From NCBI GenBank assembly GCA_949358305.1, contig OX442314.1:66163369-66227368 (forward strand): a stretch of DNA of 64,000 bases, read 5' to 3'. The translations under genes were made by a program, and so were the position numbers. Origin of the DNA: Strigamia acuminata (Eukaryota > Arthropoda > Chilopoda > Geophilomorpha > Linotaeniidae). The notes beneath the pieces were generated by a model, which did not search any database, was not told where the DNA came from, and was given only the letters and a program-made list of their open reading frames with translations. Shown piece by piece: positions 13,001 through 53,794 of this stretch (the stretch's first letter is position 1; each line of letters begins with the position of its first letter).

Positions 13001-15188
13001 CTACTAAGGTTTAAACACTATTTCTGAACATTCAGAGACATTGGACTTGTGGTGTTTCTGCTAAGTCAACTGTGATGAGATCAAAAGTCTATTCTCCCAA
13101 ATCATTGGTTGGATGTTTCTAAAACTTACATTGGAGCCTTCTACTAAGGTTTAAACACTTTTTCTGAACATTCAGAGACATTGGTCTTGTGGTGTTTGTG
13201 CTAAGTCAACTGTGATGAGATGAAAAGTCTATTCTCCCAAATCATTGGTTGGATGTTTCTAAAACTTACATTGGAGCCTTCTACTAAGGTTTAAACACTA
13301 TTTCTGAACATTCAGAGACATTGGACTTGTGGTGTTTGTGCTAAGTCAACTGTGATGAGATCAAAAGTCTATTCTCCCAAATCATTGGTTGGATGTTTCT
13401 AAAACTTACATTGGAGCCTTCTACTAAGGTTTAAACACTATTTCTGAACATTCAGAGACATTGGTGTTTGTGCTAAGTCAACTGCGATCTGAAATGAGCT
13501 CAAAATTTTTTTTTCAAAATTTATTGCTTGGGTGTTGCTAAAACTTACATCTACAAAGGTTTAAACACTATTTATAAACATTCAGACACATTGGTCTTGT
13601 GGTGTTTGTGCTAAGTCAACTGTGATGAGATCAAAAGTCTATTCTCCTAAATCAATGGTTGAATGTTTCTAAAACTTACATTGGAGCCTTCTACTAAGGT
13701 TTAAACACTATTTCTGAACATTCAGAGACATTGGACTTGTGGTGTTTCTGCTAAGTCAACTGTGATGAGATCAAAAGTCTATTCTCCCAAATCATTGGTT
13801 GGATGTTTCTAAAACTTACATTGGAGCCTTCTACTAAGGTTTAAACACTATTTCTGAACATTCAGAGACATTGGACTTGTGGTGTTTCTGCTAAGTCAAC
13901 TGTGATGAGATCAAAAGTCTATTCTCCCAAATCATTGGTTGGATGTTTCTAAAACTTACATTGGAGCCTTCTACTAAGGTTTAAACACTTTTTCTGAACA
14001 TTCAGAGACATTGGTCTTGTGGTGTTTGTGCTAAGTCAACTGTGATGAGATCAAAAGTCTATTCTCCCAAATCATTGGTTGGATGTTTCTAAAACTTACA
14101 TTGGAGCCTTCTACTAAGGTTTAAACACTATTTCTGAACATTCAGAGACATTGGACTTGTGGTGTTTGTGCTAAGTCAACTGTGATGAGATCAAAAGTCT
14201 ATTCTCCCAAATCATTGGTTGGATGTTTCTAAAACTTACATTAGAGCCTTCTACTAAGGTTTAAACACTATTTCTAAACATTCAGAGACATTGGTCTTGT
14301 GGTGTTTGTGCTAAGTCAACTGTGATTAGATCAAAAGTCTATTCTCCCAAATCATTGGTTGGATGTCTCTAAAACTTACATTGGAGCCTTCTACTAAGGT
14401 TTAAACACTATTTCTGAACATTCAGAGACATTGGTCTTGTGGTGTTTGTGCTAAGTCAACTGTGATGAGATCAAAAGTCTATTCTCCCAAATCATTGGTT
14501 GGATGTTTCTAAAACTTACATTGGAGCCTTCTACTAAGGTTTAAACACTATTTCTGAACATTCAGAGACATTGGTCTTGTGGTGTTTGTGCTAAGTCAAC
14601 TGTGATGAGATCAAAAGTCTATTCTCCTAAATCAATGGTTGAATGTTTCTAAAACTTACATTGGAGCCTTCTACTAAGGTTTAAACACTATTTCTGAACA
14701 TTCAAAGACATTGGACTTGTGGTGTTTGTGCTAAGTCAACTGTGATGAGATCAAAAGTCTATTCTCCCAAATCATTGGTTGGATGTTTCTAAAACTTACA
14801 TTGAAGCCTTCTACTAAGGTTTAAACACTATTTCTGAACATTCAGAGACATTGGACTTGTGGTGTTTGTGCTAAGTCAACTGTGATGAGATCAAAAGTCT
14901 ATTCTCCCAAATCATTGGTTGGATGTTTCTAAAACTTACATTGGAGCCTTCTACTAAGGTTTAAACACTATTTCTGAACATTCAGAGACATTGGTGTTTG
15001 TGCTAAGTCAACTGCGATCTGAAATGAGCTCAAAATTTTTTTTTCAAAATTTATTGCTTGGGTGTTGCTAAAACTTACATTTAAGGCTTCTACAAAGGTT
15101 TAAACACTATTTATAAACATTCAGACACATTGGACTTGTGGTGTTTGTGCTAAGTCAACTGTGATGAGATCAAAAGTCTATTCTCCCA
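7030..15188 (+). repeat. 140-bp satellite with higher-order repeats, forward orientation
   Basis: About 58 monomers of the same satellite. A diagnostic monomer containing CATTCAAAGACATTGG lies at 7033, 9821, 12050 and 14699. The spacings of 2788, 2229 and 2649 differ by whole monomers (about 4 and 3). Diverged poly-T monomers (for example near 7320, 8020, 9150, 10110, 11230, 12340, 13460 and 14990) give the same phasing. This is a higher-order repeat of roughly 16-20 monomers shaped by unequal exchange. No gene is seen. Confidence 0.96.
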
Positions 15189-16154
15189 TGTTGCAACTCG
15201 CCACTGCCGTGCTGCGACGAGTTGTAACGCGGTGGGGAATTATTGGCAAATTTCCCATAGGCCTATACTTTGCTTAGCTGAGAGGAGAAGTGAAGTAACT
15301 TGAGTTTCTGCCATGGATCTTGACTGTAGCTGCTCCAGGGAGTTTGGGGTTAAATCTCCCTACTCACACATGTTGGATGTTGAATAAAATAAACCTTTGT
15401 GTAGAAAAATCCAGATAATGCTTTTAATCATTTCAAAACATTAACATGGAGGCAAATTCAACTTAACTACATCTAATTCTTCATAACAAGAGTGTAACAA
15501 CTTCATAACAACAACAATTCTATAGCAACAACAAATTCATGAGGCACCTAGTGACTAAATTCATAAATAACATAAGTTAAAGCTTGCATTGTGCCTCATA
15601 ATAGAGATAAAATCAACTAAAATTAACAGAAATCATTGGAAAGAATTATAACAAATAGAATAGGAATAAACTTAACTAAATATGCAAATAACGCATCTAA
15701 AGCAAGTCAAATACACTGTAAAAATGCATTAATTGCAATCCATTACAAAATTAACAATTCCTTCTTTTCCAATGCACCTTTAAAGCAACTCAGATGCTTC
15801 AAACCCGTCATTCCGCCTTCACAACTGAACTGGGAACAGGACAAGACTTAGAAATAGGTAAACATAGCATGAAAACATTGGAAAACAAGACTAAAAATTC
15901 CTAAACCTTGACCTTGTCATTCTAAGAGATAAAATACCTAACAAACATTGTCTTTACTGAAAATTGGCACACAAAAAAGACATGTAAAATTCCTATTACA
16001 ACAGAAAAAGATTAGATATTTGCTAAATAAATAATACAATTATAAGACCGAAATTAGTAACTCTTCTTTACATTTTCGAACACATAAAATCAAACTACTA
16101 TCAAATTGACGAGCAGTTGTGGTCTCTCTTTCCTCCTTTCTGTTGCTCGAAACA
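15189..16154 (-). repeat. TK element copy 1, 3' LTR
   Basis: 966 bp. In sense it starts TGTTTCGAGCAA, 11 of 12 bases like the BEL LTR start, and ends with the 10-base palindrome TGTTGCAACA. An inverted repeat, GTTGCAACTCG against CGAGTTGTAAC, lies at the same end. A 71-codon AT-rich open frame (15636-15851) lies inside and is not considered a gene. Confidence 0.94.
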
Positions 16155-16247
16155 GAGATTGCCGCCGAAAAGAAAAGAAGGTGAAGAAGAACCTCTTAGC
16201 AATCTGAAAACTTCTCATCCACCTAGGATCAGCTCCCTAATGACTCC

Positions 16248-19235
16248 TTAAGGTAAGCGCAATTTTTTGCGGATCAAACTGGCCACCCATGGAGGTAATC
16301 TTCGATTCAAAATCGCTAAACTTAAATGTGCCGCTCCATTAATTAGCTTTCTCTTGACTTCTATAGAATTGATTGATTTCTGAAAACAGGTACGACACGT
16401 TGGCTTGTATCTCTCTTCTCCTCCCACAACCTGAACTTGCGTTTCACCCGATATTCGTTTGGTGAACGACGCTTGGTTTCCACAAAAGTGGCATTTGGCA
16501 TGAAGTTTGACAATAGTTTCCGCTAGTGGAATGAGATTAGATACTGCCTTGAATTCCTGTCTCTTAAAATCACCATTTAAAGCGGCAATTATTACATTCT
16601 TTCCTTCGTTCGCCATTTTGTCGGAAAACGAATCGATGTCTCCGAAAAATTGCCCTTCGTCGATACCTATCGTCTTGACCGACTCCGCAATTTTCTTGAT
16701 TTCCTGTAACGACGCGACCCGAACCGCTGGACGTCGTTGTCCGGTGTGGCTAACCATTTCATCTTTACTATATCTAACGTCTGTCAAATGCTTAACAAGC
16801 AGGCAAGAATTTTCTTCTTCATTTCGGATTACATTAAGTAAAGCAGTAGTTTTTCCAGAAAACATTGGGCCAATTACTAAATGTATATTTCCCGTGGCCT
16901 TTGTGACTGCATTTGATCTTCTGTGCGAATTGGTGAGTTTCTTGCGACTCCATTTCAATATCTTCCTCCATTTACTTAAACCCTTTTCTTCATCTTTTTT
17001 GAAATTTTTCGGAAATTCTCCTTTCTTTTCCGTAGACTCCAGTGTGTCAGGACTCTGAGAAATCGCCATCTTGCCCGACCTTATCCCTTTAAACGTCCGC
17101 TTTCCATCCATTTCCAATTCGATGGGGACGTCAGGACGCCTTACCTCCAGCTCGCTAGAGCGGCTCGCGGCAAAACGAGAAGCGATGACGCCTTTTGCTC
17201 GTACTCCACCCTTTTCGCTTTTCTCGTCGGGCATTGATGTGGAATTCGCCTGTCCAAACCCGCCTTTGTCCTTTTTTGAAGTGTTGAAAGTCATCTTCTT
17301 TCCAGAATCGATCGCCATACACGATACATCTCCCAGTGAGATATCGTCTTTGTAGATGGAAGGCTCTTTTGAGTTAATTTGTCCGTTTAAAATCCATCCA
17401 AAAACTGTTTTCATCATTCCTAATTCTGGACTAATTCTCTTCGTTCCCGCTTGAATTATTTTCCACCATGCTCCGCTTCCGATCAAGACATCTACCTCAT
17501 CTGACACGGAGGGATGTGGTTCTGCCATCTCAAGATTAAACGACTTGATTTGTTGCAGCGTCTGGTGATCTACCACTCCCTTTATATTGGGAAGTGTGTC
17601 GGTATCAAGAGCAAATACAGACACTTTCTGCTTGTCGTGACGAGACTGCAACTCGAATCTAAACACGTCATGAGTTGTAGGAACTGGTTCCTTGTTCAGC
17701 AGACACTGGGTCATGGTGTGATACGTCTCAATCTTGTTTAGGTGTAATTTCTTTGCTAACCGCTTCGTAATATATGAACGATGACTACCCGGATCGAGTA
17801 ATCCACGAACTGGGATTGTTTCGCCACTCTTTCGGACGAACAATGCTGTGAAAACCATTAGCTGGACGTCACTTGAGACCGACAACGAGACGTTGGCGGA
17901 GACGTTCTCTTCTTTGGTATCAGTTGGCTTTTCCGCATGACCTCTGTTACAAATTGAAGAATGGTGTCGACCACCGCATGATCGGCAACAAAATTTTACA
18001 GGGCAGTTACCCACTGTATGGCTTGGTCTCAGGCAATTAAAGCATAGACGTTTTCGCTTAACGATGTCGTATTTCTCCGAAACTTCCAGATTTGCGTCGC
18101 AATTATTGTTGAAATGATCTCCTTCACAGAAGGCACAGATCAATTTCCGGACTGGACCTGATTTTGGTTTGAATGATTCTTTCGTATTGGACCCGAATGA
18201 CGTATTTTGCGCAACCGCGCAAGATGACATGGTCCCTCGTAATTCTTCTTTTTGCTCTCTAGTTGCTGGTTTCTCACTTTTCTTGGTGACTTTCTGACTG
18301 GTAAATACGCTATCGTCTGATAATTCTGCTACTCTGACTTCGCTTGCTACAAATTCGAGAAATAAATTAACGTTTTCTACGTTTCCTTTGTAAATCCTAT
18401 GAAATCGTCTTCCCAATTCCGGTGGAAACTTCCGCAATAATTCCGGGATTAGAAATAATCCAGTAGTCGTAACTGGGAACTTCAACTGTTCTAATGTTCG
18501 GAAAGCACCGGTGAGGGACGTCAATAGAGATTTTACTGGCTTGATTGGGTACAAATCTTTAACTGCTTCAGCTTCACGAATTTTCCTCGCCAGAGCGTTC
18601 TTTTGGGCTACTTCCGACCCAAAAAGTCCTTCTAAGCTACTAAGTGCCATTAAATACGAATCGTTAGTAAGTGGGTACGACTTGATTGCCACTTCCGCTT
18701 CCCCGATACAACTTGATTTCAGGTATTGAAGTTTTTCGACGTTCGATAACTCGGCATCGGCGTCAACTGTGGTTGAAAACATATCCATGAAGCTCTTATA
18801 CTCCATCGGATTCCCGTCAAATTTCTGAAGAGTCAGCTTTGGAAGCTTTGTAGTCTTCCGTGATATGATTGATGAGTTGTTCAGAAATCCCGAATTCATT
18901 AACGTATTGCCGCCTGGATGGGCCCCAAACTTGTCCTGCATCTGCTTCGAAAACTTTGTCCTTTGCTTAAGAAGATTGACCTTTGTCCTAATGTCTTCAA
19001 GACGTCTCAAACCAAGCAGGTAATCTGAACGTTCTATTTTGTCTTTAAAGACAGCGAGCTCATCAATAAGGTCACTCAACTGCGCATCTATTGTTGCGTG
19101 GAGAGCTTCAAGCTCACCCCCGTCGAGAACGTTTGCAGATGTCAAGAGCAGATCCTCTGCTCCTTGGGCCTTGGCTTGCCATTGTGTTTCTTTCTCTTCC
19201 GCTGCTTCCGCGGTCAATCCAGCTGCAGTTGCCAT
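16248..19235 (-). CDS. Gag-protease-thymidine kinase fusion polyprotein (copy 1)
   Basis: 995 residues from ATG 19233-19235 to TAA. Residues 1-125 are mainly helical. Residues about 130-300 resemble the DUF1759 Gag region of BEL/Pao elements. Three zinc knuckles follow: C367-C370-H374-C379, C398-C401-H406-C411 and C417-C420-H424-C429. Residues about 445-620 match the DUF1758 retropepsin-like region, with catalytic-type DPGS at 481-484. A basic linker spans 620-780. Residues 782-955 are a complete type II thymidine kinase: P-loop GPMFSGKTT at 789-797, the DEGQFF motif at 859-864 with the expected catalytic Glu860, the FTKR lasso at 924-927, and structural zinc cysteines 915, 918, 947 and 950. 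That enzyme family phosphorylates thymidine to dTMP. No RT or integrase follows. The frame is intact and intronless. That the enzyme supports reverse transcription where dTTP is scarce is inference. Confidence 0.95.
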   Translation of the reverse strand: MATAAGLTAEAAEEKETQWQAKAQGAEDLLLTSANVLDGGELEALHATIDAQLSDLIDELAVFKDKIERSDYLLGLRRLEDIRTKVNLLKQRTKFSKQMQDKFGAHPGGNTLMNSGFLNNSSIISRKTTKLPKLTLQKFDGNPMEYKSFMDMFSTTVDADAELSNVEKLQYLKSSCIGEAEVAIKSYPLTNDSYLMALSSLEGLFGSEVAQKNALARKIREAEAVKDLYPIKPVKSLLTSLTGAFRTLEQLKFPVTTTGLFLIPELLRKFPPELGRRFHRIYKGNVENVNLFLEFVASEVRVAELSDDSVFTSQKVTKKSEKPATREQKEELRGTMSSCAVAQNTSFGSNTKESFKPKSGPVRKLICAFCEGDHFNNNCDANLEVSEKYDIVKRKRLCFNCLRPSHTVGNCPVKFCCRSCGGRHHSSICNRGHAEKPTDTKEENVSANVSLSVSSDVQLMVFTALFVRKSGETIPVRGLLDPGSHRSYITKRLAKKLHLNKIETYHTMTQCLLNKEPVPTTHDVFRFELQSRHDKQKVSVFALDTDTLPNIKGVVDHQTLQQIKSFNLEMAEPHPSVSDEVDVLIGSGAWWKIIQAGTKRISPELGMMKTVFGWILNGQINSKEPSIYKDDISLGDVSCMAIDSGKKMTFNTSKKDKGGFGQANSTSMPDEKSEKGGVRAKGVIASRFAASRSSELEVRRPDVPIELEMDGKRTFKGIRSGKMAISQSPDTLESTEKKGEFPKNFKKDEEKGLSKWRKILKWSRKKLTNSHRRSNAVTKATGNIHLVIGPMFSGKTTALLNVIRNEEENSCLLVKHLTDVRYSKDEMVSHTGQRRPAVRVASLQEIKKIAESVKTIGIDEGQFFGDIDSFSDKMANEGKNVIIAALNGDFKRQEFKAVSNLIPLAETIVKLHAKCHFCGNQASFTKRISGETQVQVVGGEERYKPTCRTCFQKSINSIEVKRKLINGAAHLSLAILNRRLPPWVASLIRKKLRLP

Positions 19236-19562
19236 TTATTCTCGAGAAAGAGAGAATGAGAATAAAAATTCTATTCAACAACTCAATCACTGCTAATTAA
19301 ATCCCCACGAATATTCTCCGAACTTCACAGACTCTTACTTATACTTGCTTAACGTTAATTCAAATGCGGTGTGCAAATGAAAAACGACCTCGAAATAAAA
19401 TGCTAAACTCAACTCCGAAATGCCACAGACAATCTGACTTGACACACTATACGTAATACACTGGGACGGAATTATTGACCGCACAAATAAACTTATCCGC
19501 ATAAATATCTTGATAATTCCCCCAAAATGCACTTAGTTCGAAATTAATAATTAATATCTAAC

Positions 19563-19800
19563 CGCACAACCGAGATAAATAGTTATCTTTTACAATAACA
19601 CTGCACAAAGGAGATAAATAGTTATATTTTACAATAACCCCGCACAAAGAGATAAATAGTTATATTTTACAATAACCCCGCACAAAAAGAGATAATAGCT
19701 ATAGTTTATAATAGCGCTGCACAAAAGAGATAATTAGCTATCATATACAATAGCTCCGCACTTAAGAGATAATAACTTGATGTTTAAAATTATTGACATA
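19563..19800 (-). repeat. Tandem hairpin array in TK leader (copy 1)
   Basis: Six tandem units of about 38-40 bases lie 330-570 bases upstream of the start codon. In five, an 8-base loop is enclosed by a 5-bp stem: GTTAT with ATAAC in three units, GCTAT with ATAGC in two. The T-A to C-G change occurs on both arms together, which is a compensatory change. A sixth unit pairs AATAA with TTATT over a longer loop. This points to a selected RNA structure in the genomic RNA leader, such as a packaging, export or translation element; the role is not known. Confidence 0.7.
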
Positions 19801-19964
19801 AAAAACCCCTTTTAAACTCCCCAAACACAGCTCGAAATTGGCAGAAACTTCCTTGAAAAATCAGATAAAGAATTAATTTAAATAAATATAATTCTTAAAT
19901 TCTAACAGCAATTGAGTTAAAATTAATCTTGTTCTTTATCATCAGCAGATGAACTTGAAGATTG

Positions 19965-19977
19965 ACATTGCGTTGTG
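19965..19977 (-). promoter_or_regulatory. Shared 13-base leader motif (TK copy 1)
   Basis: Reads CACAACGCAATGT in sense, about 430 bases from the 5' LTR edge. It is identical to the motif in element A and both BEL elements. A short upstream frame happens to cross it here, but the reading frame differs in the other families, so it probably acts as nucleic acid. Confidence 0.6.
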
Positions 19978-20179
19978 TTTCTCAAATTGTTGACCAGGAA
20001 ATCGCTTGCTTGTCTCCTTATGTTGACCGCCACAGTAGAAAGACTCCGAACTCGTTACACTTGACATAAAATCCACTGACGAATCAACTCCCTGACGCCT
20101 GCGAAGGACGACACAGCACAAACACACTTCTGTCGCAATTGGCGACAATAATCCAGTGGAAATAAATCGAAAAACGCGT

Positions 20180-20310
20180 CGCCACACACTTCACACCACG
20201 AAAATCGGCACCACACACTGCTTACTGCGAACTAGATGCCACACACTGCTCACTGTGAAGTCGGGAACACACACGCATCTCACTATGAAATCGATGTCAC
20301 ACACCTGGCT
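20180..20310 (-). repeat. Imperfect tandem repeats beside the primer-binding site
   Basis: About four imperfect units of 28-36 bases built on CCACACACTG-CACTGTGAA-like sequence lie between the primer-binding site and the leader motif. Copies occur in all three TK elements. They may fold, but no compensatory changes were identified. Confidence 0.5.
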
Positions 20311-20385
20311 AAAAATGCAATGACATGCACTGTAATCCACTGGAAAAACTGGACGAAAATCCTGGTTGGCAACAACAAAATCCTT

Positions 20386-20399
20386 GGGTCACGGTACCA
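20386..20399 (-). promoter_or_regulatory. Primer-binding site, TK copy 1
   Basis: In sense TGGTACCGTGACCC, four bases after the LTR end, inside the shared context TTTGGTNCCGTGA. It is complementary to a tRNA 3' end ending in ACGGTACCA. The primer tRNA species was not identified. Confidence 0.75.
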
Positions 20400-20403
20400 A
20401 AAA

Positions 20404-21369
20404 TGTTGCAACTCGCCACTGCCGTGCTGCGACGAGTTGTAACGCGGTGGGGAATTATTGGCAAATTTCCCATAGGCCTATACTTTGCTTAGCTGAGAGG
20501 AGAAGTGAAGTAACTTGAGTTTCTGCCATGGATCTTGACTGTAGCTGCTCCAGGGAGTTTGGGGTTAAATCTCCCTACTCACACATGTTGGATGTTGAAT
20601 AAAATAAACCTTTGTGTAGAAAAATCCAGATAATGCTTTTAATCATTTCAAAACATTAACATGGAGGCAAATTCAACTTAACTACATCTAATTCTTCATA
20701 ACAAGAGTGTAACAACTTCATAACAACAACAATTCTATAGCAACAACAAATTCATGAGGCACCTAGTGACTAAATTCATAAATAACATAAGTTAAAGCTT
20801 GCATTGTGCCTCATAATAGAGATAAAATCAACTAAAATTAACAGAAATCATTGGAAAGAATTATAACAAATAGAATAGGAATAAACTTAACTAAATATGC
20901 AAATAACGCATCTAAAGCAAGTCAAATACACTGTAAAAATGCATTAATTGCAATCCATTACAAAATTAACAATTCCTTCTTTTCCAATGCACCTTTAAAG
21001 CAACTCAGATGCTTCAAACCCGTCATTCCGCCTTCACAACTGAACTGGGAACAGGACAAGACTTAGAAATAGGTAAACATAGCATGAAAACATTGGAAAA
21101 CAAGACTAAAAATTCCTAAACCTTGACCTTGTCATTCTAAGAGATAAAATACCTAACAAACATTGTCTTTACTGAAAATTGGCACACAAAAAAGACATGT
21201 AAAATTCCTATTACAACAGAAAAAGATTAGATATTTGCTAAATAAATAATACAATTATAAGACCGAAATTAGTAACTCTTCTTTACATTTTCGAACACAT
21301 AAAATCAAACTACTATCAAATTGACGAGCAGTTGTGGTCTCTCTTTCCTCCTTTCTGTTGCTCGAAACA
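20404..21369 (-). repeat. TK element copy 1, 5' LTR
   Basis: 966 bp, reading the same as 15189-16154. It is the presumed promoter-bearing LTR for minus-strand transcription. It is followed on the right by the CCCA duplication and uninterrupted satellite. Confidence 0.94.
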
Positions 21370-24300
21370 CCCAAATCATTGGTTGGATGTTTCTAAAACT
21401 TACATTGGAGCCTTCTACTAAGGTTTAAACACTATTTCTGAACATTCAGAGACATTGGTCTTGTGGTGTTTGTGCTAAGTCAACTGTGATGAGATCAAAA
21501 GTCTATTCTCCCAAATCATTGGTTGGATGTTTCTAAAATTTACATTGGAGCCTTCTACTAAGGTTTAAACACTATTTCTGAACATTCAAAGACATTGGAC
21601 TTGTGGTGTTTGTGCTAAGTCAACTGTGATGAGATCAAAAGTCTATTCTCCCAAATCATTGGTTGGATGTTTCTAAAACTTACATTGAAGCCTTCTACTA
21701 AGGTTTAAACACTATTTCTGAACATTCAGAGACATTGGACTTGTGGTGTTTGTGCTAAGTCAACTGTGATGAGATCAAAAGTCTATTCTCCCAAATCATT
21801 GGTTGGATGTTTCTAAAACTTACATTGGAGCCTTCTACTAAGGTTTAAACACTATTTCTGAACATTCAGAGACATTGGTGTTTGTGCTAAGTCAACTGCG
21901 ATCTGAAATGAGCTCAAAATTTTTTTTTCAAAATTTATTGCTTGGGTGTTGCTAAAACTTACATTTAAGGCTTCTACAAAGGTTTAAACACTATTTATAA
22001 ACATTCAGACACATTGGACTTGTGGTGTTTGTGCTAAGTCAACTGTGATGAGATCAAAAGTCTATTCTCCCAAATCATTGGTTGGATGTTTCTAAAACTT
22101 ACATTGGAGCCTTCTACTAAGGTTTAAACACTATTTCTGAACATTCAGAGACATTGGTCTTGTGGTGTTTGTGCTAAGTCAACTGTGATGAGATCAAAAG
22201 TCTATTCTCCTAAATCAATGGTTGAATGTTTCTAAAACTTACATTGGAGCCTTCTACTAAGGTTTAAACACTATTTCTGAACATTCAGAGACATTGGACT
22301 TGTGGTGTTTCTGCTAAGTCAACTGTGATGAGATCAAAAGTCTATTCTCCCAAATCATTGGTTAGATGTTTCTAAAACTTACATTGGAGCCTTCTACTAA
22401 GGTTTAAACACTATTTCTGAACATTCAGAGACATTGGTCTTGTGGTGTTTGTGCTAAGTCAACTGTGATGAGATCAAAAGTCTATTTTCCTAAATCAATG
22501 GTTGAATGTTTCTAAAACTTACATTGGAGCCTTCTACTAAGGTTTAAACACTATTTCTGAACATTCAGAGACATTGGACTTGTGGTGTTTCTGCTAAGTC
22601 AACTGTGATGAGATCAAAAGTCTATTCTCCCAAATCATTGGTTGGATGTTTCTAAAACTTACATTGGAGCCTTCTACTAAGGTTTAAACACTTTTTCTGA
22701 ACATTCAGAGACATTGGTCTTGTGGTGTTTGTGCTAAGTCAACTGTGATGAGATGAAAAGTCTATTCTCCCAAATCATTGGTTGGATGTTTCTAAAACTT
22801 ACATTGGAGCCTTCTACTAAGGTTTAAACACTATTTCTGAACATTCAGAGACATTGGACTTGTGGTGTTTGTGCTAAGTCAACTGTGATGAGATCAAAAG
22901 TCTATTCTCCCAAATCATTGGTTGGATGTTTCTAAAACTTACATTGGAGCCTTCTACTAAGGTTTAAACACTATTTCTGAACATTCAGAGACATTGGTGT
23001 TTGTGCTAAGTCAACTGCGATCTGAAATGAGCTCAAAATTTTTTTTTCAAAATTTATTGCTTGGGTGTTGCTAAAACTTACATCTACAAAGGTTTAAACA
23101 CTATTTATAAACATTCAGACACATTGGTCTTGTGGTGTTTGTGCTAAGTCAACTGTGATGAGATCAAAAGTCTATTCTCCTAAATCAATGGTTGAATGTT
23201 TCTAAAACTTACATTGGAGCCTTCTACTAAGGTTTAAACACTATTTCTGAACATTCAGAGACATTGGACTTGTGGTGTTTCTGCTAAGTCAACTGTGATG
23301 AGATCAAAAGTCTATTCTCCCAAATCATTGGTTGGATGTTTCTAAAACTTACATTGGAGCCTTCTACTAAGGTTTAAACACTATTTCTGAACATTCAGAG
23401 ACATTGGACTTGTGGTGTTTCTGCTAAGTCAACTGTGATGAGATCAAAAGTCTATTCTCCCAAATCATTGGTTGGATGTTTCTAAAACTTACATTGGAGC
23501 CTTCTACTAAGGTTTAAACACTTTTTCTGAACATTCAGAGACATTGGTCTTGTGGTGTTTGTGCTAAGTCAACTGTGATGAGATCAAAAGTCTATTCTCC
23601 CAAATCATTGGTTGGATGTTTCTAAAACTTACATTGGAGCCTTCTACTAAGGTTTAAACACTATTTCTGAACATTCAGAGACATTGGACTTGTGGTGTTT
23701 GTGCTAAGTCAACTGTGATGAGATCAAAAGTCTATTCTCCCAAATCATTGGTTGGATGTTTCTAAAACTTACATTGGAGCCTTCTACTAAGGTTTAAACA
23801 CTATTTCTGAACATTCAGAGACATTGGTGTTTGTGCTAAGTCAACTGCGATCTGAAATGAGCTCAAAATTTTTTTTTCAAAATTTATTGCTTGGGTGTTG
23901 CTAAAACTTACATCTACAAAGGTTTAAACACTATTTATAAACATTCAGACACATTGGACTTGTGGTGTTTGTGCTAAGTCAACTGTGATGAGATCAAAAG
24001 TCTATTCTCCCAAATCATTGGTTGGATGTTTCTAAAACTTACATTAGAGCCTTCTACTAAGGTTTAAACACTATTTCTAAACATTCAGAGACATTGGTCT
24101 TGTGGTGTTTGTGCTAAGTCAACTGTGATTAGATCAAAAGTCTATTCTCCCAAATCATTGGTTGGATGTCTCTAAAACTTACATTGGAGCCTTCTACTAA
24201 GGTTTAAACACTATTTCTGAACATTCAGAGACATTGGTCTTGTGGTGTTTGTGCTAAGTCAACTGTGATGAGATCAAAAGTCTATTCTCCCAAATCATTG

Positions 24301-26050: not shown

Positions 26051-29038
26051 TTAAGGTAAGCGCAATTTTTTGCGGATCAAACTGGCCACCCATGGAGGTA
26101 ATCTTCGATTCAAAATCGCTAAACTTAAATGTGCCGCTCCATTAATTAGCTTTCTCTTGACTTCTATAGAATTGATTGATTTCTGAAAACAGGTACGACA
26201 CGTTGGCTTGTATCTCTCTTCTCCTCCCACAACCTGAACTTGCGTTTCACCCGATATTCGTTTGGTGAACGACGCTTGGTTTCCACAAAAGTGGCATTTG
26301 GCATGAAGTTTGACAATAGTTTCCGCTAGTGGAATGAGATTAGATACTGCCTTGAATTCCTGTCTCTTAAAATCACCATTTAAAGCGGCAATTATTACAT
26401 TCTTTCCTTCGTTCGCCATTTTGTCGGAAAACGAATCGATGTCTCCGAAAAATTGCCCTTCGTCGATACCTATCGTCTTGACCGACTCCGCAATTTTCTT
26501 GATTTCCTGTAACGACGCGACCCGAACCGCTGGACGTCGTTGTCCGGTGTGGCTAACCATTTCATCTTTACTATATCTAACGTCTGTCAAATGCTTAACA
26601 AGCAGGCAAGAATTTTCTTCTTCATTTCGGATTACATTAAGTAAAGCAGTAGTTTTTCCAGAAAACATTGGGCCAATTACTAAATGTATATTTCCCGTGG
26701 CCTTTGTGACTGCATTTGATCTTCTGTGCGAATTGGTGAGTTTCTTGCGACTCCATTTCAATATCTTCCTCCATTTACTTAAACCCTTTTCTTCATCTTT
26801 TTTGAAATTTTTCGGAAATTCTCCTTTCTTTTCCGTAGACTCCAGTGTGTCAGGACTCTGAGAAATCGCCATCTTGCCCGACCTTATCCCTTTAAACGTC
26901 CGCTTTCCATCCATTTCCAATTCGATGGGGACGTCAGGACGCCTTACCTCCAGCTCGCTAGAGCGGCTCGCGGCAAAACGAGAAGCGATGACGCCTTTTG
27001 CTCGTACTCCACCCTTTTCGCTTTTCTCGTCGGGCATTGATGTGGAATTCGCCTGTCCAAACCCGCCTTTGTCCTTTTTTGAAGTGTTGAAAGTCATCTT
27101 CTTTCCAGAATCGATCGCCATACACGATACATCTCCCAGTGAGATATCGTCTTTGTAGATGGAAGGCTCTTTTGAGTTAATTTGTCCGTTTAAAATCCAT
27201 CCAAAAACTGTTTTCATCATTCCTAATTCTGGACTAATTCTCTTCGTTCCCGCTTGAATTATTTTCCACCATGCTCCGCTTCCGATCAAGACATCTACCT
27301 CATCTGACACGGAGGGATGTGGTTCTGCCATCTCAAGATTAAACGACTTGATTTGTTGCAGCGTCTGGTGATCTACCACTCCCTTTATATTGGGAAGTGT
27401 GTCGGTATCAAGAGCAAATACAGACACTTTCTGCTTGTCGTGACGAGACTGCAACTCGAATCTAAACACGTCATGAGTTGTAGGAACTGGTTCCTTGTTC
27501 AGCAGACACTGGGTCATGGTGTGATACGTCTCAATCTTGTTTAGGTGTAATTTCTTTGCTAACCGCTTCGTAATATATGAACGATGACTACCCGGATCGA
27601 GTAATCCACGAACTGGGATTGTTTCGCCACTCTTTCGGACGAACAATGCTGTGAAAACCATTAGCTGGACGTCACTTGAGACCGACAACGAGACGTTGGC
27701 GGAGACGTTCTCTTCTTTGGTATCAGTTGGCTTTTCCGCATGACCTCTGTTACAAATTGAAGAATGGTGTCGACCACCGCATGATCGGCAACAAAATTTT
27801 ACAGGGCAGTTACCCACTGTATGGCTTGGTCTCAGGCAATTAAAGCATAGACGTTTTCGCTTAACGATGTCGTATTTCTCCGAAACTTCCAGATTTGCGT
27901 CGCAATTATTGTTGAAATGATCTCCTTCACAGAAGGCACAGATCAATTTCCGGACTGGACCTGATTTTGGTTTGAATGATTCTTTCGTATTGGACCCGAA
28001 TGACGTATTTTGCGCAACCGCGCAAGATGACATGGTCCCTCGTAATTCTTCTTTTTGCTCTCTAGTTGCTGGTTTCTCACTTTTCTTGGTGACTTTCTGA
28101 CTGGTAAATACGCTATCGTCTGATAATTCTGCTACTCTGACTTCGCTTGCTACAAATTCGAGAAATAAATTAACGTTTTCTACGTTTCCTTTGTAAATCC
28201 TATGAAATCGTCTTCCCAATTCCGGTGGAAACTTCCGCAATAATTCCGGGATTAGAAATAATCCAGTAGTCGTAACTGGGAACTTCAACTGTTCTAATGT
28301 TCGGAAAGCACCGGTGAGGGACGTCAATAGAGATTTTACTGGCTTGATTGGGTACAAATCTTTAACTGCTTCAGCTTCACGAATTTTCCTCGCCAGAGCG
28401 TTCTTTTGGGCTACTTCCGACCCAAAAAGTCCTTCTAAGCTACTAAGTGCCATTAAATACGAATCGTTAGTAAGTGGGTACGACTTGATTGCCACTTCCG
28501 CTTCCCCGATACAACTTGATTTCAGGTATTGAAGTTTTTCGACGTTCGATAACTCGGCATCGGCGTCAACTGTGGTTGAAAACATATCCATGAAGCTCTT
28601 ATACTCCATCGGATTCCCGTCAAATTTCTGAAGAGTCAGCTTTGGAAGCTTTGTAGTCTTCCGTGATATGATTGATGAGTTGTTCAGAAATCCCGAATTC
28701 ATTAACGTATTGCCGCCTGGATGGGCCCCAAACTTGTCCTGCATCTGCTTCGAAAACTTTGTCCTTTGCTTAAGAAGATTGACCTTTGTCCTAATGTCTT
28801 CAAGACGTCTCAAACCAAGCAGGTAATCTGAACGTTCTATTTTGTCTTTAAAGACAGCGAGCTCATCAATAAGGTCACTCAACTGCGCATCTATTGTTGC
28901 GTGGAGAGCTTCAAGCTCACCCCCGTCGAGAACGTTTGCAGATGTCAAGAGCAGATCCTCTGCTCCTTGGGCCTTGGCTTGCCATTGTGTTTCTTTCTCT
29001 TCCGCTGCTTCCGCGGTCAATCCAGCTGCAGTTGCCAT
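26051..29038 (-). CDS. Gag-protease-thymidine kinase fusion polyprotein (copy 2)
   Basis: 995 residues, with the same translation as the copy at 16248. It has the DUF1759-like Gag region, three zinc knuckles between residues 367 and 429, a DPGS protease motif at 481-484, a basic linker, and a complete type II thymidine kinase at 782-955 with P-loop, DEGQFF and four zinc-binding cysteines. The start is ATG 29036-29038. Its leader (29039-30188) contains the hairpin array. Nothing in the sequence separates it functionally from copy 1. Confidence 0.94.
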   Translation of the reverse strand: MATAAGLTAEAAEEKETQWQAKAQGAEDLLLTSANVLDGGELEALHATIDAQLSDLIDELAVFKDKIERSDYLLGLRRLEDIRTKVNLLKQRTKFSKQMQDKFGAHPGGNTLMNSGFLNNSSIISRKTTKLPKLTLQKFDGNPMEYKSFMDMFSTTVDADAELSNVEKLQYLKSSCIGEAEVAIKSYPLTNDSYLMALSSLEGLFGSEVAQKNALARKIREAEAVKDLYPIKPVKSLLTSLTGAFRTLEQLKFPVTTTGLFLIPELLRKFPPELGRRFHRIYKGNVENVNLFLEFVASEVRVAELSDDSVFTSQKVTKKSEKPATREQKEELRGTMSSCAVAQNTSFGSNTKESFKPKSGPVRKLICAFCEGDHFNNNCDANLEVSEKYDIVKRKRLCFNCLRPSHTVGNCPVKFCCRSCGGRHHSSICNRGHAEKPTDTKEENVSANVSLSVSSDVQLMVFTALFVRKSGETIPVRGLLDPGSHRSYITKRLAKKLHLNKIETYHTMTQCLLNKEPVPTTHDVFRFELQSRHDKQKVSVFALDTDTLPNIKGVVDHQTLQQIKSFNLEMAEPHPSVSDEVDVLIGSGAWWKIIQAGTKRISPELGMMKTVFGWILNGQINSKEPSIYKDDISLGDVSCMAIDSGKKMTFNTSKKDKGGFGQANSTSMPDEKSEKGGVRAKGVIASRFAASRSSELEVRRPDVPIELEMDGKRTFKGIRSGKMAISQSPDTLESTEKKGEFPKNFKKDEEKGLSKWRKILKWSRKKLTNSHRRSNAVTKATGNIHLVIGPMFSGKTTALLNVIRNEEENSCLLVKHLTDVRYSKDEMVSHTGQRRPAVRVASLQEIKKIAESVKTIGIDEGQFFGDIDSFSDKMANEGKNVIIAALNGDFKRQEFKAVSNLIPLAETIVKLHAKCHFCGNQASFTKRISGETQVQVVGGEERYKPTCRTCFQKSINSIEVKRKLINGAAHLSLAILNRRLPPWVASLIRKKLRLP

Positions 29039-31644: not shown

Positions 31645-33198
31645 TGTTGCGAGCAAGAACGCAACAAAAAGATCTGGAGATTTCACGTTGTTTATCTTCT
31701 GAAAGGAAGAAAAGGCTTTTTTAATTTTGTTGTCAAGTTTGAATAGATTTTTAACACATATCTGACCTGTCCAGTTGGTTTGCTGCTTTGTTGACACGAT
31801 CCTGGAAGTTCAAGGGGGTTGCCACTTCGCCTGCCACACCTGGAATGTTTGAAAGTTGTGTTTTTAGTCTTTTGTAATTGTTTTATGTGTCTTTTTCACT
31901 TTTAGGTGTTGTTTCTAGTATTTGTAAGTTCTCTCCCGTTTCCAGTTCACTTGCGAGGGAGATAGTCGTGCACCGGCAAGATGGCCGCCATAGCGCAAGT
32001 GAACTGGGAGACGGGAAGAACCTGAAATAAGCACAATTGCAGTTTTAGTGCTTGTTTTGCTTGTGATTTAATTTATACTAACTTGTATTGGTGTTTAAGG
32101 AACTCCCCAGGTGTCCTGGGTCGCTGGATGAACGTTGGACATCGTTTGTGAGCGTTCGGGAGCGTCGGGCGTGAGCGCACGCCTTGCGACGCCTCTCGTG
32201 GTCGTGTGGGTCCTGCAAATGAGTTGAATTGGTCGGGTTTCAATGTCCAAGCACTGGGAAAGTTGTACTGACCGTTCTAGGACGCAGATCCATCGTTGAG
32301 AAGGCCTGTGAGTCGCTTGCGACCTTGTTTGGCTCCATTCACGTCATTTTAGCAGTTGCATGGTCGCCATCTTGGATTTGGTGCTGCACTGGTGCCCTGT
32401 TATTATTTAGTTTGGGGTTTTAATGAAACCTGGACATAGGGAATATATACTAGTTATTGTTTGTATAAATTACCAATATTAAGAGTTATTAATCTAAGCC
32501 TTTACCTTTGTTATTGCATGGTTGTAAAGGGGTTAAAACTGTGACACGTTGCGCCCTCTGTTGGTGGTGATTGGGTTTGGGCTAAGCATTGTGTTTTGAG
32601 TGTAATTAATATTAGTTTTAGCCTTTGAATTATCTGTTAAGTTTAAGTGAAGTGCTGTTTGCACAGGTCATAATGTTATCAAGGTGTTAGGTTAAGTTTT
32701 GCCTTTACTTATGTTAAGTTTGACATCTGTTGTAGAAATACGGAAACCTTGTTGGCACTATTGTTATTATGCAAATCTGTATTGTTTGGTCACTGATATT
32801 TATTGTAAGCAGGTGACCAGTTGTTGTGTGGTTGCTAAAGAAGCAATCAGTTGTTACTTGTTGTTAAGATTAAAAAGTTGATGTGTTTTCACTCCTGCTT
32901 TGAACATTCTTTTCTGATCTTATTTCCTACTCAGGGAAATATGCAAATGAGTGAGTAGAAAGCTTTGCATGCTCTCCTCCTCACTGGAGGCACAAGGTTT
33001 TCCCCAGTATCCAGAGAGCTTCCTTTATCATTTTCAACTGAATGCAGTTAGGCCTGATTTCTCATGATGCAGTTAGGCCTAGAGTTTGGGCTGAGAGGTC
33101 AACTTGTTTCATCAACCACTATACAGTCTCGGGCGGTCTCCAGAGTTTACAGACCAATTCGCCAGTATTCCTTGTGAGAGCCAAGGTTGTTTGCTACA
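31645..33198 (+). repeat. BEL-1 5' LTR
   Basis: 1554 bp. It begins with a perfect hairpin, TGTTGCG and CGCAACA around 8 bases, and ends TTTGCTACA. It contains a long inverted repeat (31929-32020), a GC-rich hairpin at 32162-32192 (GCGTCGGGCGTG against CACGCC and CGACGC), and a doubled ATGCAGTTAGGCCT near 33042. Short frames (64 and 60 codons) are not considered genes. Confidence 0.95.
31929..32020 (+). promoter_or_regulatory. Long inverted repeat with YY1/Pho-like core in loop
   Basis: The arms are about 26 bases each (core CAGTTCACTTGCG and CGCAAGTGAACTG) and enclose about 38 bases that include AAGATGGCCGCCAT. The corresponding BEL-2 stem differs at several positions but keeps pairing: CCCG/CGGG becomes CCTG/CAGG, and a C-G pair near the loop becomes T-A. 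The loop motif is kept. The second copy is at 39489-39580. Regulatory function is inferred. Confidence 0.55.
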
Positions 33199-33212
33199 GG
33201 GAGCTGAGTTTT

Positions 33213-33230
33213 TGGTACCGTGATTCCAGG
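33213..33230 (+). promoter_or_regulatory. Primer-binding site, BEL-1
   Basis: TGGTACCGTGATTCCAGG, 14 bases after the LTR. It matches 18 bases in BEL-2 and the first 11 bases (one substitution in element A) of the TK and element A sites. Confidence 0.78.
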
Positions 33231-33420
33231 ATTTCGTGCACGTTTGCGCAGCGTGTGCGTTTCAGTGGTCATTTGGGCGTTCAGCAAGTGGCTCAAGTGG
33301 TTTGGTGCGCGCCAGTTGGTTCGTCTTGTGCGGCTGGTTCCGCGAGCGTCCGGCATCAAGTGCGCACGCCAGAGAGTCATGTGAGAGCGGCCATGGACAT
33401 CCTGAGTCTGCCAAGTCATT

Positions 33421-33433
33421 CACAACGCAATGT
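33421..33433 (+). promoter_or_regulatory. Shared 13-base leader motif (BEL-1)
   Basis: CACAACGCAATGT, 223 bases inside the 5' LTR edge. It is identical in the other families. Confidence 0.6.
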
Positions 33434-33878
33434 GCAAGTTGATCAGTTGCTGCCACCTGAAAGAAGAAGATCATTTAGTTGATTAAAGTGGTTTTGGTTG
33501 GGTTTTTATTGGGATTACTTGATGTGCCCTCTCAGGGGGGAGGGGAAGTGTGTTTTTTTGCATTTAAGTAGCAATTTAAGTTTGTCTCGCTCTAGATAAC
33601 TGCACAAGCAGGAGAGCACAGTTTAGAAGTAGTTAACAGGAAATAGTCTACTTTAGAGTTCAGGGAATTTTTGGGTGTTGCATCACTCAATTTCCTCAGC
33701 ATAGAAAAGTTTAGCACCAGTTAAGAGAATTTTTGAGTGTTGTGTCACTCAGTTCTTTAGTTTAGCAGTTAGTGTATTTGGTCACTGTTTGGCCAACTGG
33801 TACTTGTGTTTTGTCTGGTGTGTGTCTTTGGTTTTTGGCTGATTGATTGTCTTCACTTTCTGCCATTCCAGGTCTGAC

Positions 33879-39152: not shown

Positions 39153-39204
39153 CGTGGTCGATTTGTTTGAGCCGGCTGTCTGCTTCTTTTTCGGCTGGCA
39201 GCGA

Positions 39205-40758
39205 TGTTGCGAGCAAGAACGCAACAAAAAGATCTGGAGATTTCACGTTGTTTATCTTCTGAAAGGAAGAAAAGGCTTTTTTAATTTTGTTGTCAAGTTT
39301 GAATAGATTTTTAACACATATCTGACATGTCCAGTTGGTTTGCTGCTTTGTTGACACGATCCTGGAAGTTCAAGGGGGTTGCCACTTCGCCTGCCACACC
39401 TGGAATGTTTGAAAGTTGTGTTTTTAGTCTTTTGTAATTGTTTTATGTGTCTTTTTCACTTTTAGGTGTTGTTTCTAGTATTTGTAAGTTCTCTCCCGTT
39501 TCCAGTTCACTTGCGAGGGAGATAGTCGTGCACCGGCAAGATGGCCGCCATAGCGCAAGTGAACTGGGAGACGGGAAGAACCTGAAATAAGCACAATTGC
39601 AGTTTTAGTGCTTGTTTTGCTTGTGATTTAATTTATACTAACTTGTATTGGTGTTTAAGGAACTCCCCAGGTGTCCTGGGTCGCTGGATGAACGTTGGAC
39701 ATCGTTTGTGAGCGTTCGGGAGCGTCGGGCGTGAGCGCACGCCTTGCGACGCCTCTCGTGGTCGTGTGGGTCCTGCAAATGAGTTGAATTGGTCGGGTTT
39801 CAATGTCCAAGCACTGGGAAAGTTGTACTGACCGTTCTAGGACGCAGATCCATCGTTGAGAAGGCCTGTGAGTCGCTTGCGACCTTGTTTGGCTCCATTC
39901 ACGTCATTTTAGCAGTTGCATGGTCGCCATCTTGGATTTGGTGCTGCACTGGTGCCCTGTTATTATTTAGTTTGGGGTTTTAATGAAACCTGGACATAGG
40001 GAATATATACTAGTTATTGTTTGTATAAATTACCAATATTAAGAGTTATTAATCTAAGCCTTTACCTTTGTTATTGCATGGTTGTAAAGGGGTTAAAACT
40101 GTGACACGTTGCGCCCTCTGTTGGTGGTGATTGGGTTTGGGCTAAGCATTGTGTTTTGAGTGTAATTAATATTAGTTTTAGCCTTTGAATTATCTGTTAA
40201 GTTTAAGTGAAGTGCTGTTTGCACAGGTCATAATGTTATCAAGGTGTTAGGTTAAGTTTTGCCTTTACTTATGTTAAGTTTGACATCTGTTGTAGAAATA
40301 CGGAAACCTTGTTGGCACTATTGTTATTATGCAAATCTGTATTGTTTGGTCACTGATATTTATTGTAAGCAGGTGACCAGTTGTTGTGTGGTTGCTAAAG
40401 AAGCAATCAGTTGTTACTTGTTGTTAAGATTAAAAAGTTGATGTGTTTTCACTCCTGCTTTGAACATTCTTTTCTGATCTTATTTCCTACTCAGGGAAAT
40501 ATGCAAATGAGTGAGTAGAAAGCTTTGCATGCTCTCCTCCTCACTGGAGGCACAAGGTTTTCCCCAGTATCCAGAGAGCTTCCTTTATCATTTTCAACTG
40601 AATGCAGTTAGGCCTGATTTCTCATGATGCAGTTAGGCCTAGAGTTTGGGCTGAGAGGTCAACTTGTTTCATCAACCACTATACAGTCTCGGGCGGTCTC
40701 CAGAGTTTACAGACCAATTCGCCAGTATTCCTTGTGAGAGCCAAGGTTGTTTGCTACA
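39205..40758 (+). repeat. BEL-1 3' LTR
   Basis: 1554 bp, offset 7560 from the 5' LTR, with one visible substitution. It starts 52 bases after the gag-pol stop codon. The junction upstream reads CTTTTTCGGCTGGCAGCGA, not a purine tract. Confidence 0.95.
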
Positions 40759-43616: not shown

Positions 43617-43668
43617 TCGCTGCCAGCCGAAAAAGAAGCGGACAGCCGGCCTAAGCGACTCGACCACG

Positions 43669-48945: not shown

Positions 48946-49031
48946 GTCAAACCTGGAATGGCAGAAAGTGAAGACAATCAGTCAGTCAAAAACCAAAGAC
49001 ACACAACTCTAAACACAGGTGATATTTGGAC
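48946..49031 (-). other. BEL-2 leader, start-codon-proximal part
   Basis: 86 bases of leader between the gag-pol ATG and the TK insertion. It includes the splice-acceptor-like CCATTCCAG just before the ATG and ends at the GGAC target duplication (49028-49031). Confidence 0.85.
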
Positions 49032-49987: not shown

Positions 49988-50080
49988 GAGATTGCCGCCG
50001 AAAAGAAAAGAAGGTGAAGAAGAACCTCTTAGCAATCTGAAAACTTCTCATCCACCTAGGATCAGCTCCCTAATGACTCC

Positions 50081-53068: not shown

Positions 53069-53399
53069 TTATTCTCGAGAAAGAGAGAATGAGAATAAAA
53101 ATTCTATTCAACAACTCAATAACTGCGAATTAAATTCCCACGAATATTCTCCGAACTTCACAGACTCTTACTTATACTTGCTTAACGTTAATTCAAATGC
53201 GGTGTGCAAATGAAAAACGACCTCGAAATAAAATGCTAAACTCAACTCCGGAATACTACAGACAAATTGACTTAACACACTATACGTAATACACTGGGAC
53301 GGAATTATTGATTGCACAAATGAACTTATCCGCATAAATATCTAGATAATTCCCCCAAAATGCACTTAATTCGAAATTAATATTCAATATCTAACCGCA

Positions 53400-53640: not shown

Positions 53641-53794
53641 CCTTTTAAACTCCCCAAATACAGCTCGAAATTGGCAGAAACTCCCTTGGAAAATCAGATA
53701 AAGAATTAATTTAAATAAATATAATTCTTAAATTCTAACAGCAATTGAGTTAAAATTAATCTTGTTCTTTATCATCAGCAGATGAACTTGAAGA

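What the first reader, a model, noticed from the sequence alone, without database searches (positions are those of the whole stretch)
16248..19235. Retrotransposon polyprotein with a complete thymidine kinase in place of RT, RNase H and integrase
One uninterrupted ORF joins BEL-type Gag, three zinc knuckles and a DPGS protease region to a type II thymidine kinase with all diagnostic motifs. It is present in three copies, in two sequence lineages with defined LTRs and target duplications. I know of dUTPase capture by retroviruses and of thymidine kinases in large DNA viruses, but not of a TK1-type enzyme fused to a BEL Gag-protease. A salvage kinase could raise dTTP for reverse transcription in non-dividing germline or somatic cells.
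Basis: partly seen in the sequence, partly recalled or inferred. Interest (0 to 1): 0.92.

Follow-up and report, generated by a model that had tools for sequence, protein, structure and literature searches.

The report
Retrotransposon carrying a thymidine kinase
A centipede genome holds scores of copies of a jumping gene that lacks its own copying enzymes and instead carries a well-preserved enzyme that makes a DNA building block, a combination for which I found no published precedent.

Summary
The 995-aa frame at 16248-19235 (minus strand) joins BEL/Pao Gag, three CCHC knuckles and a DPGS protease to a complete TK1-type thymidine kinase (PF00265, 185 bits; predicted fold matches human TK1 at 44% identity). 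RT, RNase H and integrase are absent. By mitochondrial COX2 and assembly size the genome is that of the centipede Strigamia acuminata. Of 150 scored TK places, 91 belong to two Gag-Pro-TK families; 84 keep the full frame. Exact 4-5-bp target duplications at 12 of 13 distinct flank pairs show LTR-type integration. The kinase evolves under purifying selection (dN/dS about 0.12) beside a loosely constrained linker (0.47-0.99). Corrections: copy 2 duplicates copy 1 together with its flank, and copy 3 sits inside a full-length BEL element. In a third family the two copies read keep the layout but have lost the kinase core, so the kinase is not indispensable. Three further lineages of standalone TK repeats lie in the same genome. 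Best reading: a non-autonomous BEL element mobilised in trans, whose Gag-linked kinase supplies dTMP for reverse transcription. Structure, integration and selection are shown; kinase activity and benefit are inferred.

The parts
15189..21369 (-). Copy 1: whole Gag-Pro-TK element, LTR to LTR (6181 bp), inserted in a 140-bp satellite array
   Evidence: Self-comparison and coordinates read back
20404..21369 (-). Copy 1 5' LTR (966 bp, TGTTTCGAGC...GTTGCAACA), identical to the 3' LTR
15189..16154 (-). Copy 1 3' LTR (966 bp)
21370..21373 (-). Copy 1 target-site duplication TGGG (5' side)
15185..15188 (-). Copy 1 target-site duplication TGGG (3' side)
20386..20403 (-). Primer-binding-site-like TTTTTGGTACCGTGACCC directly after the 5' LTR; same core in both full-length BEL elements of the window
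16155..16180 (-). Motif before the 3' LTR (CTTCTTTTCTTTTCGGCGGCAATCTC); kin in families A2 and A3 and, diverged, in the full-length elements
16248..19235 (-). Gag-Pro-TK polyprotein, 995 aa, one frame
18390..18821 (-). Gag domain (DUF1759, residues 139-282)
   Evidence: E 3.9e-15
17949..18137 (-). Three CCHC zinc knuckles (residues 367-379, 398-411, 417-429)
17379..17813 (-). Retropepsin-like protease region with DPGS (residues 475-619)
   Evidence: Below Pfam cut-off but aligned to the protease region of a full-length BEL element
16911..17315 (-). Fast-evolving linker between protease and kinase (residues 641-775)
   Evidence: dN/dS 0.47 and 0.99 in the two informative pairs
16383..16892 (-). 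Thymidine kinase domain (residues 782-951): P-loop GPMFSGKT at 789, DEGQFF at 859, cysteines 915/918/947/950
16251..16370 (-). C-terminal tail (residues 956-995); residues 961-992 have a counterpart in family A3, where the kinase core is lost
26051..29038 (-). Copy 2 ORF (protein identical to copy 1); 3' LTR 24992-25957, 5' LTR partial 30207-30631, cut by N gap 30632-30831; shares copy 1's 3' flank
49032..55192 (-). Copy 3: whole element (6161 bp; LTRs 956 bp identical; TSD GTCC at 55193-55196 and 49028-49031), nested in a full-length BEL element; ORF 50081-53068
31645..40758 (+). Full-length BEL/Pao element (LTRs 1554 bp, ORF 33843-39152, 1769 aa); TSD TGGG at the same satellite position as copy 1
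   Evidence: Pfam: DUF1759, A17, H2C2, DUF5641 above cut-off, RVT_1 and rve below it
42043..57428 (-). Second full-length BEL/Pao element (ORF 43669-48945, 1758 aa; LTRs identical over 1576 bp; TSD ATGA), interrupted in its leader by copy 3

Best explanation
This is a non-autonomous BEL/Pao LTR retrotransposon. It has Gag, the protease, LTRs, a primer site and the 3' priming region, lacks RT, RNase H and integrase, and carries a captured animal-type thymidine kinase 1 domain in the same frame. It most likely moves by using the RT and integrase of full-length BEL elements in the same genome (two with open polyprotein frames lie in this window, one of them interrupted in its leader by a TK element). 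Translation of one frame makes TK in one-to-one ratio with Gag, so the kinase would ride in or near the particles in which reverse transcription takes place, converting thymidine to dTMP and easing dTTP supply where host nucleotide synthesis is low. Shown here: fusion, LTR-type integration with target duplications, copy number, frame conservation, purifying selection on the kinase. Inferred: mobilisation in trans, kinase activity, packaging, and the benefit to reverse transcription.
For: TK identity: PF00265 185 bits; human TK1 1xbt E 6.7e-44 over residues 778-953; AlphaFold model pLDDT 89.3, pTM 0.85, best PDB match 1xbt, TM 0.94 by target length, 44% identity; P-loop, DEGQFF and four cysteines present. 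Capture point: homology to a full-length polyprotein ends at residue 639. Integration: 12 of 13 distinct flank pairs among 17 A1 copies compared have exact 4-5-bp duplications; identical LTR pairs in copies 1 and 3. Selection: TK dN/dS 0.121 (95% 0.067-0.190) against 0.469 for the linker in the A1/A1' pair, and 0.126 against 0.989 in the A2 pair; TK below linker in 1995 of 1995 and 1990 of 1990 usable bootstraps of 2000. 84 of 91 scored copies keep the full-length frame. Cis signals shared with full-length elements: primer-site core and LTR start. No longer element with the same LTR was seen: the pairs that can be formed among the 40 LTRs scored (of 101 candidates) lie about 5.2 kb apart. Precedent for a nucleotide enzyme in this slot: dUTPase between PR and RT in rotifer and planarian LTR elements (passages of PMC5408684; PMC6431247).
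Against: No activity, expression or packaging data. Family A3 (27 listed places, 19 with an 892-codon frame) has the same layout, but in both copies read the kinase core is gone, so the kinase is not required for spread of every lineage. The helper was not identified: Gag-protease is only 39% identical to the full-length element compared, and the nearer autonomous relative L071 was not linked by LTR; repeated searches for its copies did not complete. Only two of seven pairs tell TK from linker well; a third (A1/L024) has few changes (0.11 against 0.27), A1/A2 and A1'/A2 are saturated, and dS of A1/A1' is about 1.
Confidence: 0.6

Rival explanations
1. The kinase is a passenger: a host TK1 sequence fused by chance to a Gag-Pro element and spread by it, kept intact only because the copies are young. 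Its activity does nothing for the element.
For: LTR pairs are identical in copies 1 and 3, so young age alone would keep frames open within a family. Family A3 reached 27 listed places although both copies read have lost the kinase core.
Against: Between diverged copies the kinase is constrained (dN/dS 0.12) while the neighbouring linker in the same copies is much less so (0.47, 0.99). A1 and A2 share the fusion at 53% TK identity, so the kinase has been kept through long divergence.
Confidence: 0.2
2. The kinase acts for the host or for the element in a way other than dTTP supply, for example as a nucleic-acid-binding or structural C-terminal module of Gag, or by supplying thymidine salvage for the host, which may have no ordinary TK1 gene.
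For: The C-terminal tail outlives the kinase in family A3, so the C-terminus may have a role of its own. Two degenerate-codon patterns for canonical animal TK1 motifs found 0 places in the genome, and the TK matches listed are multi-copy.
Against: The catalytic-site motifs are retained, which a structural module would not need. Absence of a host TK1 is not shown: patterns miss intron-split or variant motifs, and only 150 of 202-205 candidates were scored.
Confidence: 0.15
3. The fusion is an assembly or annotation artefact.
For: The window is satellite-rich, and copy 2 abuts an N gap.
Against: 91 scored places on many scaffolds, two families 53% identical in TK, 13 distinct flank pairs, 12 with exact target duplications; the assembly is HiFi with QV 59.6 (PMC10556566, passages).
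Confidence: 0.01

Closest known systems
BEL/Pao LTR retrotransposons (full-length elements at 31645-40758 and 42043-57428)
   Same: DUF1759 Gag, DPGS protease region, TG...CA LTRs, same primer-site core, 4-bp duplications
   Different: No RT, RNase H or integrase; a linker and a TK stand in their place
LTR elements and retroviruses with a dUTPase next to PR (bdelloid Juno/Vesta/TelKA, planarian giant Gypsy-like elements; passages of PMC5408684 and PMC6431247)
   Same: A nucleotide-pool enzyme in the polyprotein right after the protease
   Different: Different enzyme (TK1, not dUTPase), and those elements have RT after it
TR-GAG type non-autonomous LTR elements (plants; seen only in the search listing, definition recalled)
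   Same: LTRs plus Gag, no pol; thought to move in trans
   Different: Animal BEL lineage, protease present, and an extra enzyme domain under selection
Cellular and poxviral type II thymidine kinases (human TK1 1xbt, vaccinia 2j87)
   Same: Family, fold, motifs
   Different: Here the C-terminal domain of a Gag-Pro polyprotein, in high copy number

Membership tests
Type II (TK1-like) thymidine kinase | PF00265 profile above its cut-off over the whole domain | tested here: met
   185 bits against 20.6, profile 1-176 of 176
Type II (TK1-like) thymidine kinase | P-loop, DEGQ(F) catalytic motif, four zinc-binding cysteines (roles of the motifs recalled) | tested here: met
   invariant columns include GPMF, GK, DEGQFF and the four cysteines
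Type II (TK1-like) thymidine kinase | TK1 fold | tested here: met
   Predicted model matches 1xbt, E 1.2e-19, TM 0.94 by target
Type II (TK1-like) thymidine kinase | Phosphorylates thymidine | not testable with these tools
   needs enzyme assay
BEL/Pao LTR retrotransposon | BEL-type Gag (DUF1759) | tested here: met
   3.9e-15, 56.6 bits against 25.4
BEL/Pao LTR retrotransposon | Retropepsin-like protease (DUF1758) | tested here: inconclusive
   19.4 bits, below the cut-off of 22; aligned with the protease region of a full-length BEL element, 39% over Gag-PR
BEL/Pao LTR retrotransposon | LTRs, primer-binding site, short target duplication | tested here: met
BEL/Pao LTR retrotransposon (autonomous) | RT, RNase H and integrase encoded | tested here: not met
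   no such Pfam match up to E 1 in P0001 or P0002; homology to the full-length polyprotein ends at residue 639. Filed as a non-autonomous BEL-derived element
Non-autonomous Gag-only LTR element (TR-GAG-like) | LTR element with Gag, mobilised by a partner's pol | tested here: inconclusive
   Gag and LTRs present, pol absent; mobilisation in trans inferred, partner not identified

The most novel reading that the evidence does not exclude
A nucleotide-supply satellite: a Gag-Pro element that depends on autonomous BEL elements for RT and integrase and brings a packaged thymidine kinase to the shared particles, in a genome where thymidine kinase itself has become a mobile gene (five TK lineages in repeats, possibly from one lineage-specific ancestor) and may survive only in repeats.
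Probability: 0.18. Interest if true: 0.92.

Novelty: new variant of a known kind. Interest (0 to 1): 0.8.

Why it matters
Retroelements are known to carry dUTPase, but I found no printed case of a thymidine kinase in an LTR retrotransposon (searches; open-access papers only, listings seen). If the enzyme is active in particles, nucleotide supply becomes a trait that retroelements can carry themselves, and a direct test of whether dTTP limits reverse transcription in germ cells becomes possible. Three related families, two with an intact kinase and one with a lost one, form a natural comparison. Several kinds of repeats with TK in one genome raise the question whether a cellular metabolic gene can become wholly mobile.

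Tried and rejected
Assembly artefact: rejected (13 distinct flank pairs, two diverged families).

TK-bearing autonomous BEL element: looked for, none seen. The frames of 1118 and 1999 codons with TK (C130) are TK genes of class C beside stretches that are open in all six frames, as repeats are. The LTR pairs formed lie about 5.2 kb apart. Of the two places with frames of 2105 and 2043 codons the one read, L071, is a full-length element without TK.

Site-specific insertion: copy 1 and the full-length element at 31645 share the exact satellite position, but other copies lie elsewhere in the satellite or outside it, so no site specificity is claimed.

Host TK1: two degenerate patterns gave 0 places; a spider TK1 query returned the five known classes among 150 scored of 202 candidates. 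Not proof of absence.

Capture from a DNA virus: 8 TK-like loci in viral contigs are 27-39% identical in their best segments; three of them in a tree gave very long branches. The 27 cellular or metagenomic homologues aligned are 40-49% identical. A viral source is not supported, and not excluded (poxviral TKs were compared only through, at 38-42%).

TK trees: rows were picked by hand. One search used 48 rows out of the 120 listed homologues, leaving out the proteins of about 350 aa except one domain of P0032. One search used 27 of those 48 (the three rows flagged long and 18 others were left out) plus 3 of 8 viral loci. The clade of all kinases of this genome's repeats had 84/98 and 92/91 support, below the program's star threshold, so a single origin is likely, not shown; one search warned of long branches and an unsettled bootstrap. 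The BEL kinases A1+A2 form a clade at 98/94 and 97/93 (starred).

Gag-protease tree: A1+A2 88/96; with A4 88/99; place of A3 and of L071 unresolved; long branches warned of.

Cis signals: A4 showed no match to the primer-site or LTR-start motif, A3 none to the primer site, in the stretches fetched.

Led nowhere: Rfam scan of the window (0 matches); P0001 in viral contigs (0 relatives); protein search with residues 700-995 (1 match at E 1e-3 or better, a Trebouxia protein, among 1708 candidates; candidates were limited to lengths of 0.55-1.75 times the query); neighbours of class B and C kinases (no Pfam match above its cut-off).
Full report
What was checked. The frame 16248-19235 is on the minus strand and is open for 995 codons. 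Pfam finds DUF1759 (Gag) at 139-282 and PF00265 (thymidine kinase) at 782-951 with 185 bits; the protease model DUF1758 stays just under its cut-off. Three CCHC motifs lie at 367-429, DPGS at 481, the P-loop at 789, DEGQFF at 859, and four cysteines at 915/918/947/950. Human TK1 (1xbt) matches residues 778-953 at E 6.7e-44. The AlphaFold model of the domain (pLDDT 89.3, pTM 0.85) matches human TK1 1xbt best (E 1.2e-19, TM 0.94 by target length). No RT, RNase H or integrase match up to E 1 occurs in the frame.

Anatomy. Copy 1 spans 15189-21369 with identical 966-bp LTRs and TSD TGGG inside a 140-bp satellite array. Copy 2 (ORF 26051-29038) is identical to copy 1 over 5929 bp including 288 bp of 3' flank, and its 5' LTR is cut by an N gap, so it is a duplicate and not a second insertion. 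Copy 3 (49032-55192) has identical 956-bp LTRs and TSD GTCC, and is nested in the leader of a full-length BEL element at 42043-57428 whose own LTRs are identical over 1576 bp. Another full-length element lies at 31645-40758. Both encode Gag to the C-terminal integrase-linked domain in one frame; DUF1759, A17, H2C2 and DUF5641 pass their cut-offs, RVT_1 and rve do not. The TK protein aligns with the first of these at 39% identity over residues 29-639 and stops there. So linker and kinase stand in the place of the rest of pol. Differences between copies 1 and 3 are clustered in the ends of the LTRs, the leader and Gag, with few elsewhere, which looks like recombination between copies.

The organism. 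COX2 of the assembly's mitochondrial contig is 91% identical to Strigamia maritima; the next of the 120 hits listed is at 77%. The assembly size of 237.5 Mb equals that of Strigamia acuminata (PMC10556566, passages; 158 scaffolds there, 157 contigs here). One scaffold, C13, has the length given for the Y chromosome (10.34 Mb).

Genome-wide. Of 205 TK candidates 150 were scored. By hand these are 41 of family A1 (one a divergent relative, A1', locus L028), 51 of family A2, 40 of class B, 13 of class C and 5 of class D. A1 and A2 are Gag-Pro-TK. Of them 37 of 40 A1 (without A1') and 47 of 51 A2 have the full-length frame (995 or 1002; 1009 or 1013). The LTR search scored 40 of 101 candidates, and the pairs that can be formed are about 5.2 kb apart. 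I compared both flanks of 15 further A1 copies and of copies 1 and 3. They form 13 distinct flank pairs; 10 have an exact 4-bp duplication, 2 an exact 5-bp one, and 1 (C1:64.62 Mb) an imperfect one. Flanks of A2 copies were not tested.

Selection. Nei-Gojobori on codon alignments: A1 against A1', TK 0.121 (bootstrap 95% 0.067-0.190), linker 0.469 (0.296-0.770), protease 0.063; A2 pair, TK 0.126 (0.051-0.270), linker 0.989 (0.434-3.6). Of seven pairs these two are informative; A1 against L024 has few changes (TK 0.11, linker 0.27), two more A1 pairs have next to none in TK, and A1 or A1' against A2 is saturated at synonymous sites. dS of the A1/A1' pair is about 1, so absolute values are rough; the contrast with the linker of the same copies is the better evidence.

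Against. A search with a 116-aa protease piece (150 of 963 candidates scored) disclosed a further family, A3: 27 places, 19 with an 892-codon frame. Two copies were read (L069, L070). The C-terminus of L069 is homologous to linker, TK and tail of A2 (score 106 against shuffles 36.5 with s.d. 5.4, 0 of 1000 as high); against the TK part alone the likeness is weaker (1 of 1000 shuffles as high). Only a spoiled P-loop region and the tail remain of the kinase. It has amplified nevertheless. A fourth family, A4 (L072), has a C-terminus rich in hydrophobic stretches without likeness to TK. So the C-terminal slot of these Gag-Pro elements is changeable and the kinase can be lost.

Distribution. Intervals of 250 kb on either side of the A1 copies cover 7.7 Mb (3.4% of an approximate 225 Mb). 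On scaffolds C1-C13 they hold 27 of 41 A2 and 9 of 18 A3 copies, but 3 of 145 of the top-scoring other BEL Gags and 1 of 32 class B kinases; with 100 kb the figures are 13, 4, 1 and 1, with 500 kb 35, 15, 3 and 7 (positions typed; one search scored 150 of 1045). The non-autonomous families thus crowd in shared domains and on the scaffold of the Y's length. Of 19 A1 copies whose flanks one search compared with the 140-bp satellite, 11 matched it.

Helper. The primer-site core TTGGTACCGTGA is found in A1, A2 (L023) and the two full-length elements; the LTR start TGTT[TG]C.AGCAA in A1, A2, A3, the full-length elements and, with one change allowed, L071; the motif before the 3' LTR in A1, A2, A3 and, diverged, the full-length ones. 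A4 showed neither primer site nor LTR start in the stretch fetched, A3 no primer site. This fits mobilisation by BEL enzymes in trans but names no helper. In a Gag-protease tree L071 falls near A1-A4, while the window's full-length elements form another clade with others (99/100).

Origin of the kinase. A1 and A2 kinases form a clade (98/94 and 97/93). All five TK lineages of the genome group together with 84/98 and 92/91, which is suggestive only. Class B and C kinases are under constraint too (B against C dN/dS 0.13). Class B lies in a repeated block of at least about 17.7 kb, compared in two copies at 98-99%; tested neighbours of B and C have no Pfam match above cut-off. No ordinary TK1 was seen by two motif patterns or a spider query, which is not proof of absence.

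Literature. Ten searches gave no title or abstract start of a TK in an LTR retrotransposon; 'thymidine kinase' with 'Bel-Pao' gave 0 papers. Only listings were seen except for passages of PMC10556566, PMC5408684, PMC6431247 and PMC7999308. In the main texts of the two papers on captured genes 'dUTPase' occurs and 'thymidine' and 'kinase' do not. The library is open-access only, and repeat databases were not searchable here.

Verdict. Observation confirmed with corrections; a non-autonomous BEL element with a captured and constrained TK1. New variant of a known kind (LTR element with a captured nucleotide enzyme), with an enzyme for which I found no precedent. Function inferred.

Noticed in passing
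L019-L021, L031-L034 (G000:C3:2.36 Mb, C1:3.66 Mb, C1:32.57 Mb): Class B: a 185-aa standalone TK gene in at least 40 places on many scaffolds; two copies compared are 98-99% alike over at least about 17.7 kb, both ends set by what was fetched. Possibly a giant mobile element.
   Followed up: partly
L009-L014, L017, L018: Class C: 181-aa TK in 13 scored places, in two of them beside stretches open in all six frames; TK 78% identical to class B with dN/dS 0.13.
   Followed up: partly
L015, L016 (G000:C13:1.19 Mb, C3:1.82 Mb): Class D: 210-aa TK in 5 places, the closest of the five lineages to a spider TK1 (52%); may be a duplicated host gene.
   Followed up: partly
L069, L070 (read) and 25 further places listed: Family A3: Gag-Pro element, 891 aa, with a decayed TK and a conserved tail; 19 of 27 places have the 892-codon frame.
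   Followed up: partly
L072 (G000:C14:37500-42500): Family A4: Gag-Pro element whose C-terminal part has several hydrophobic, membrane-like stretches instead of pol or TK.
   Followed up: partly
window 21370-21373 and 31641-31644: A TK element and a full-length BEL element are inserted at the same base of the 140-bp satellite unit (TSD TGGG both).
   Followed up: partly
G000:C13: The scaffold of the Y chromosome's length carries many A1, A2 and A3 copies (7 of 40, 12 of 51, 11 of 27 typed places) and 2 of 150 other BEL Gags.
   Followed up: partly
window 15189-21369 against 49032-55192: Differences between copies 1 and 3 are clustered in the LTR ends, the leader and Gag, with few in the rest, as if made by recombination.
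   Followed up: partly
window 60680-64000: GC-rich minisatellite (64-bp unit over most of it) with long open frames on both strands; those ORFs are not genes on this evidence.
   Followed up: no
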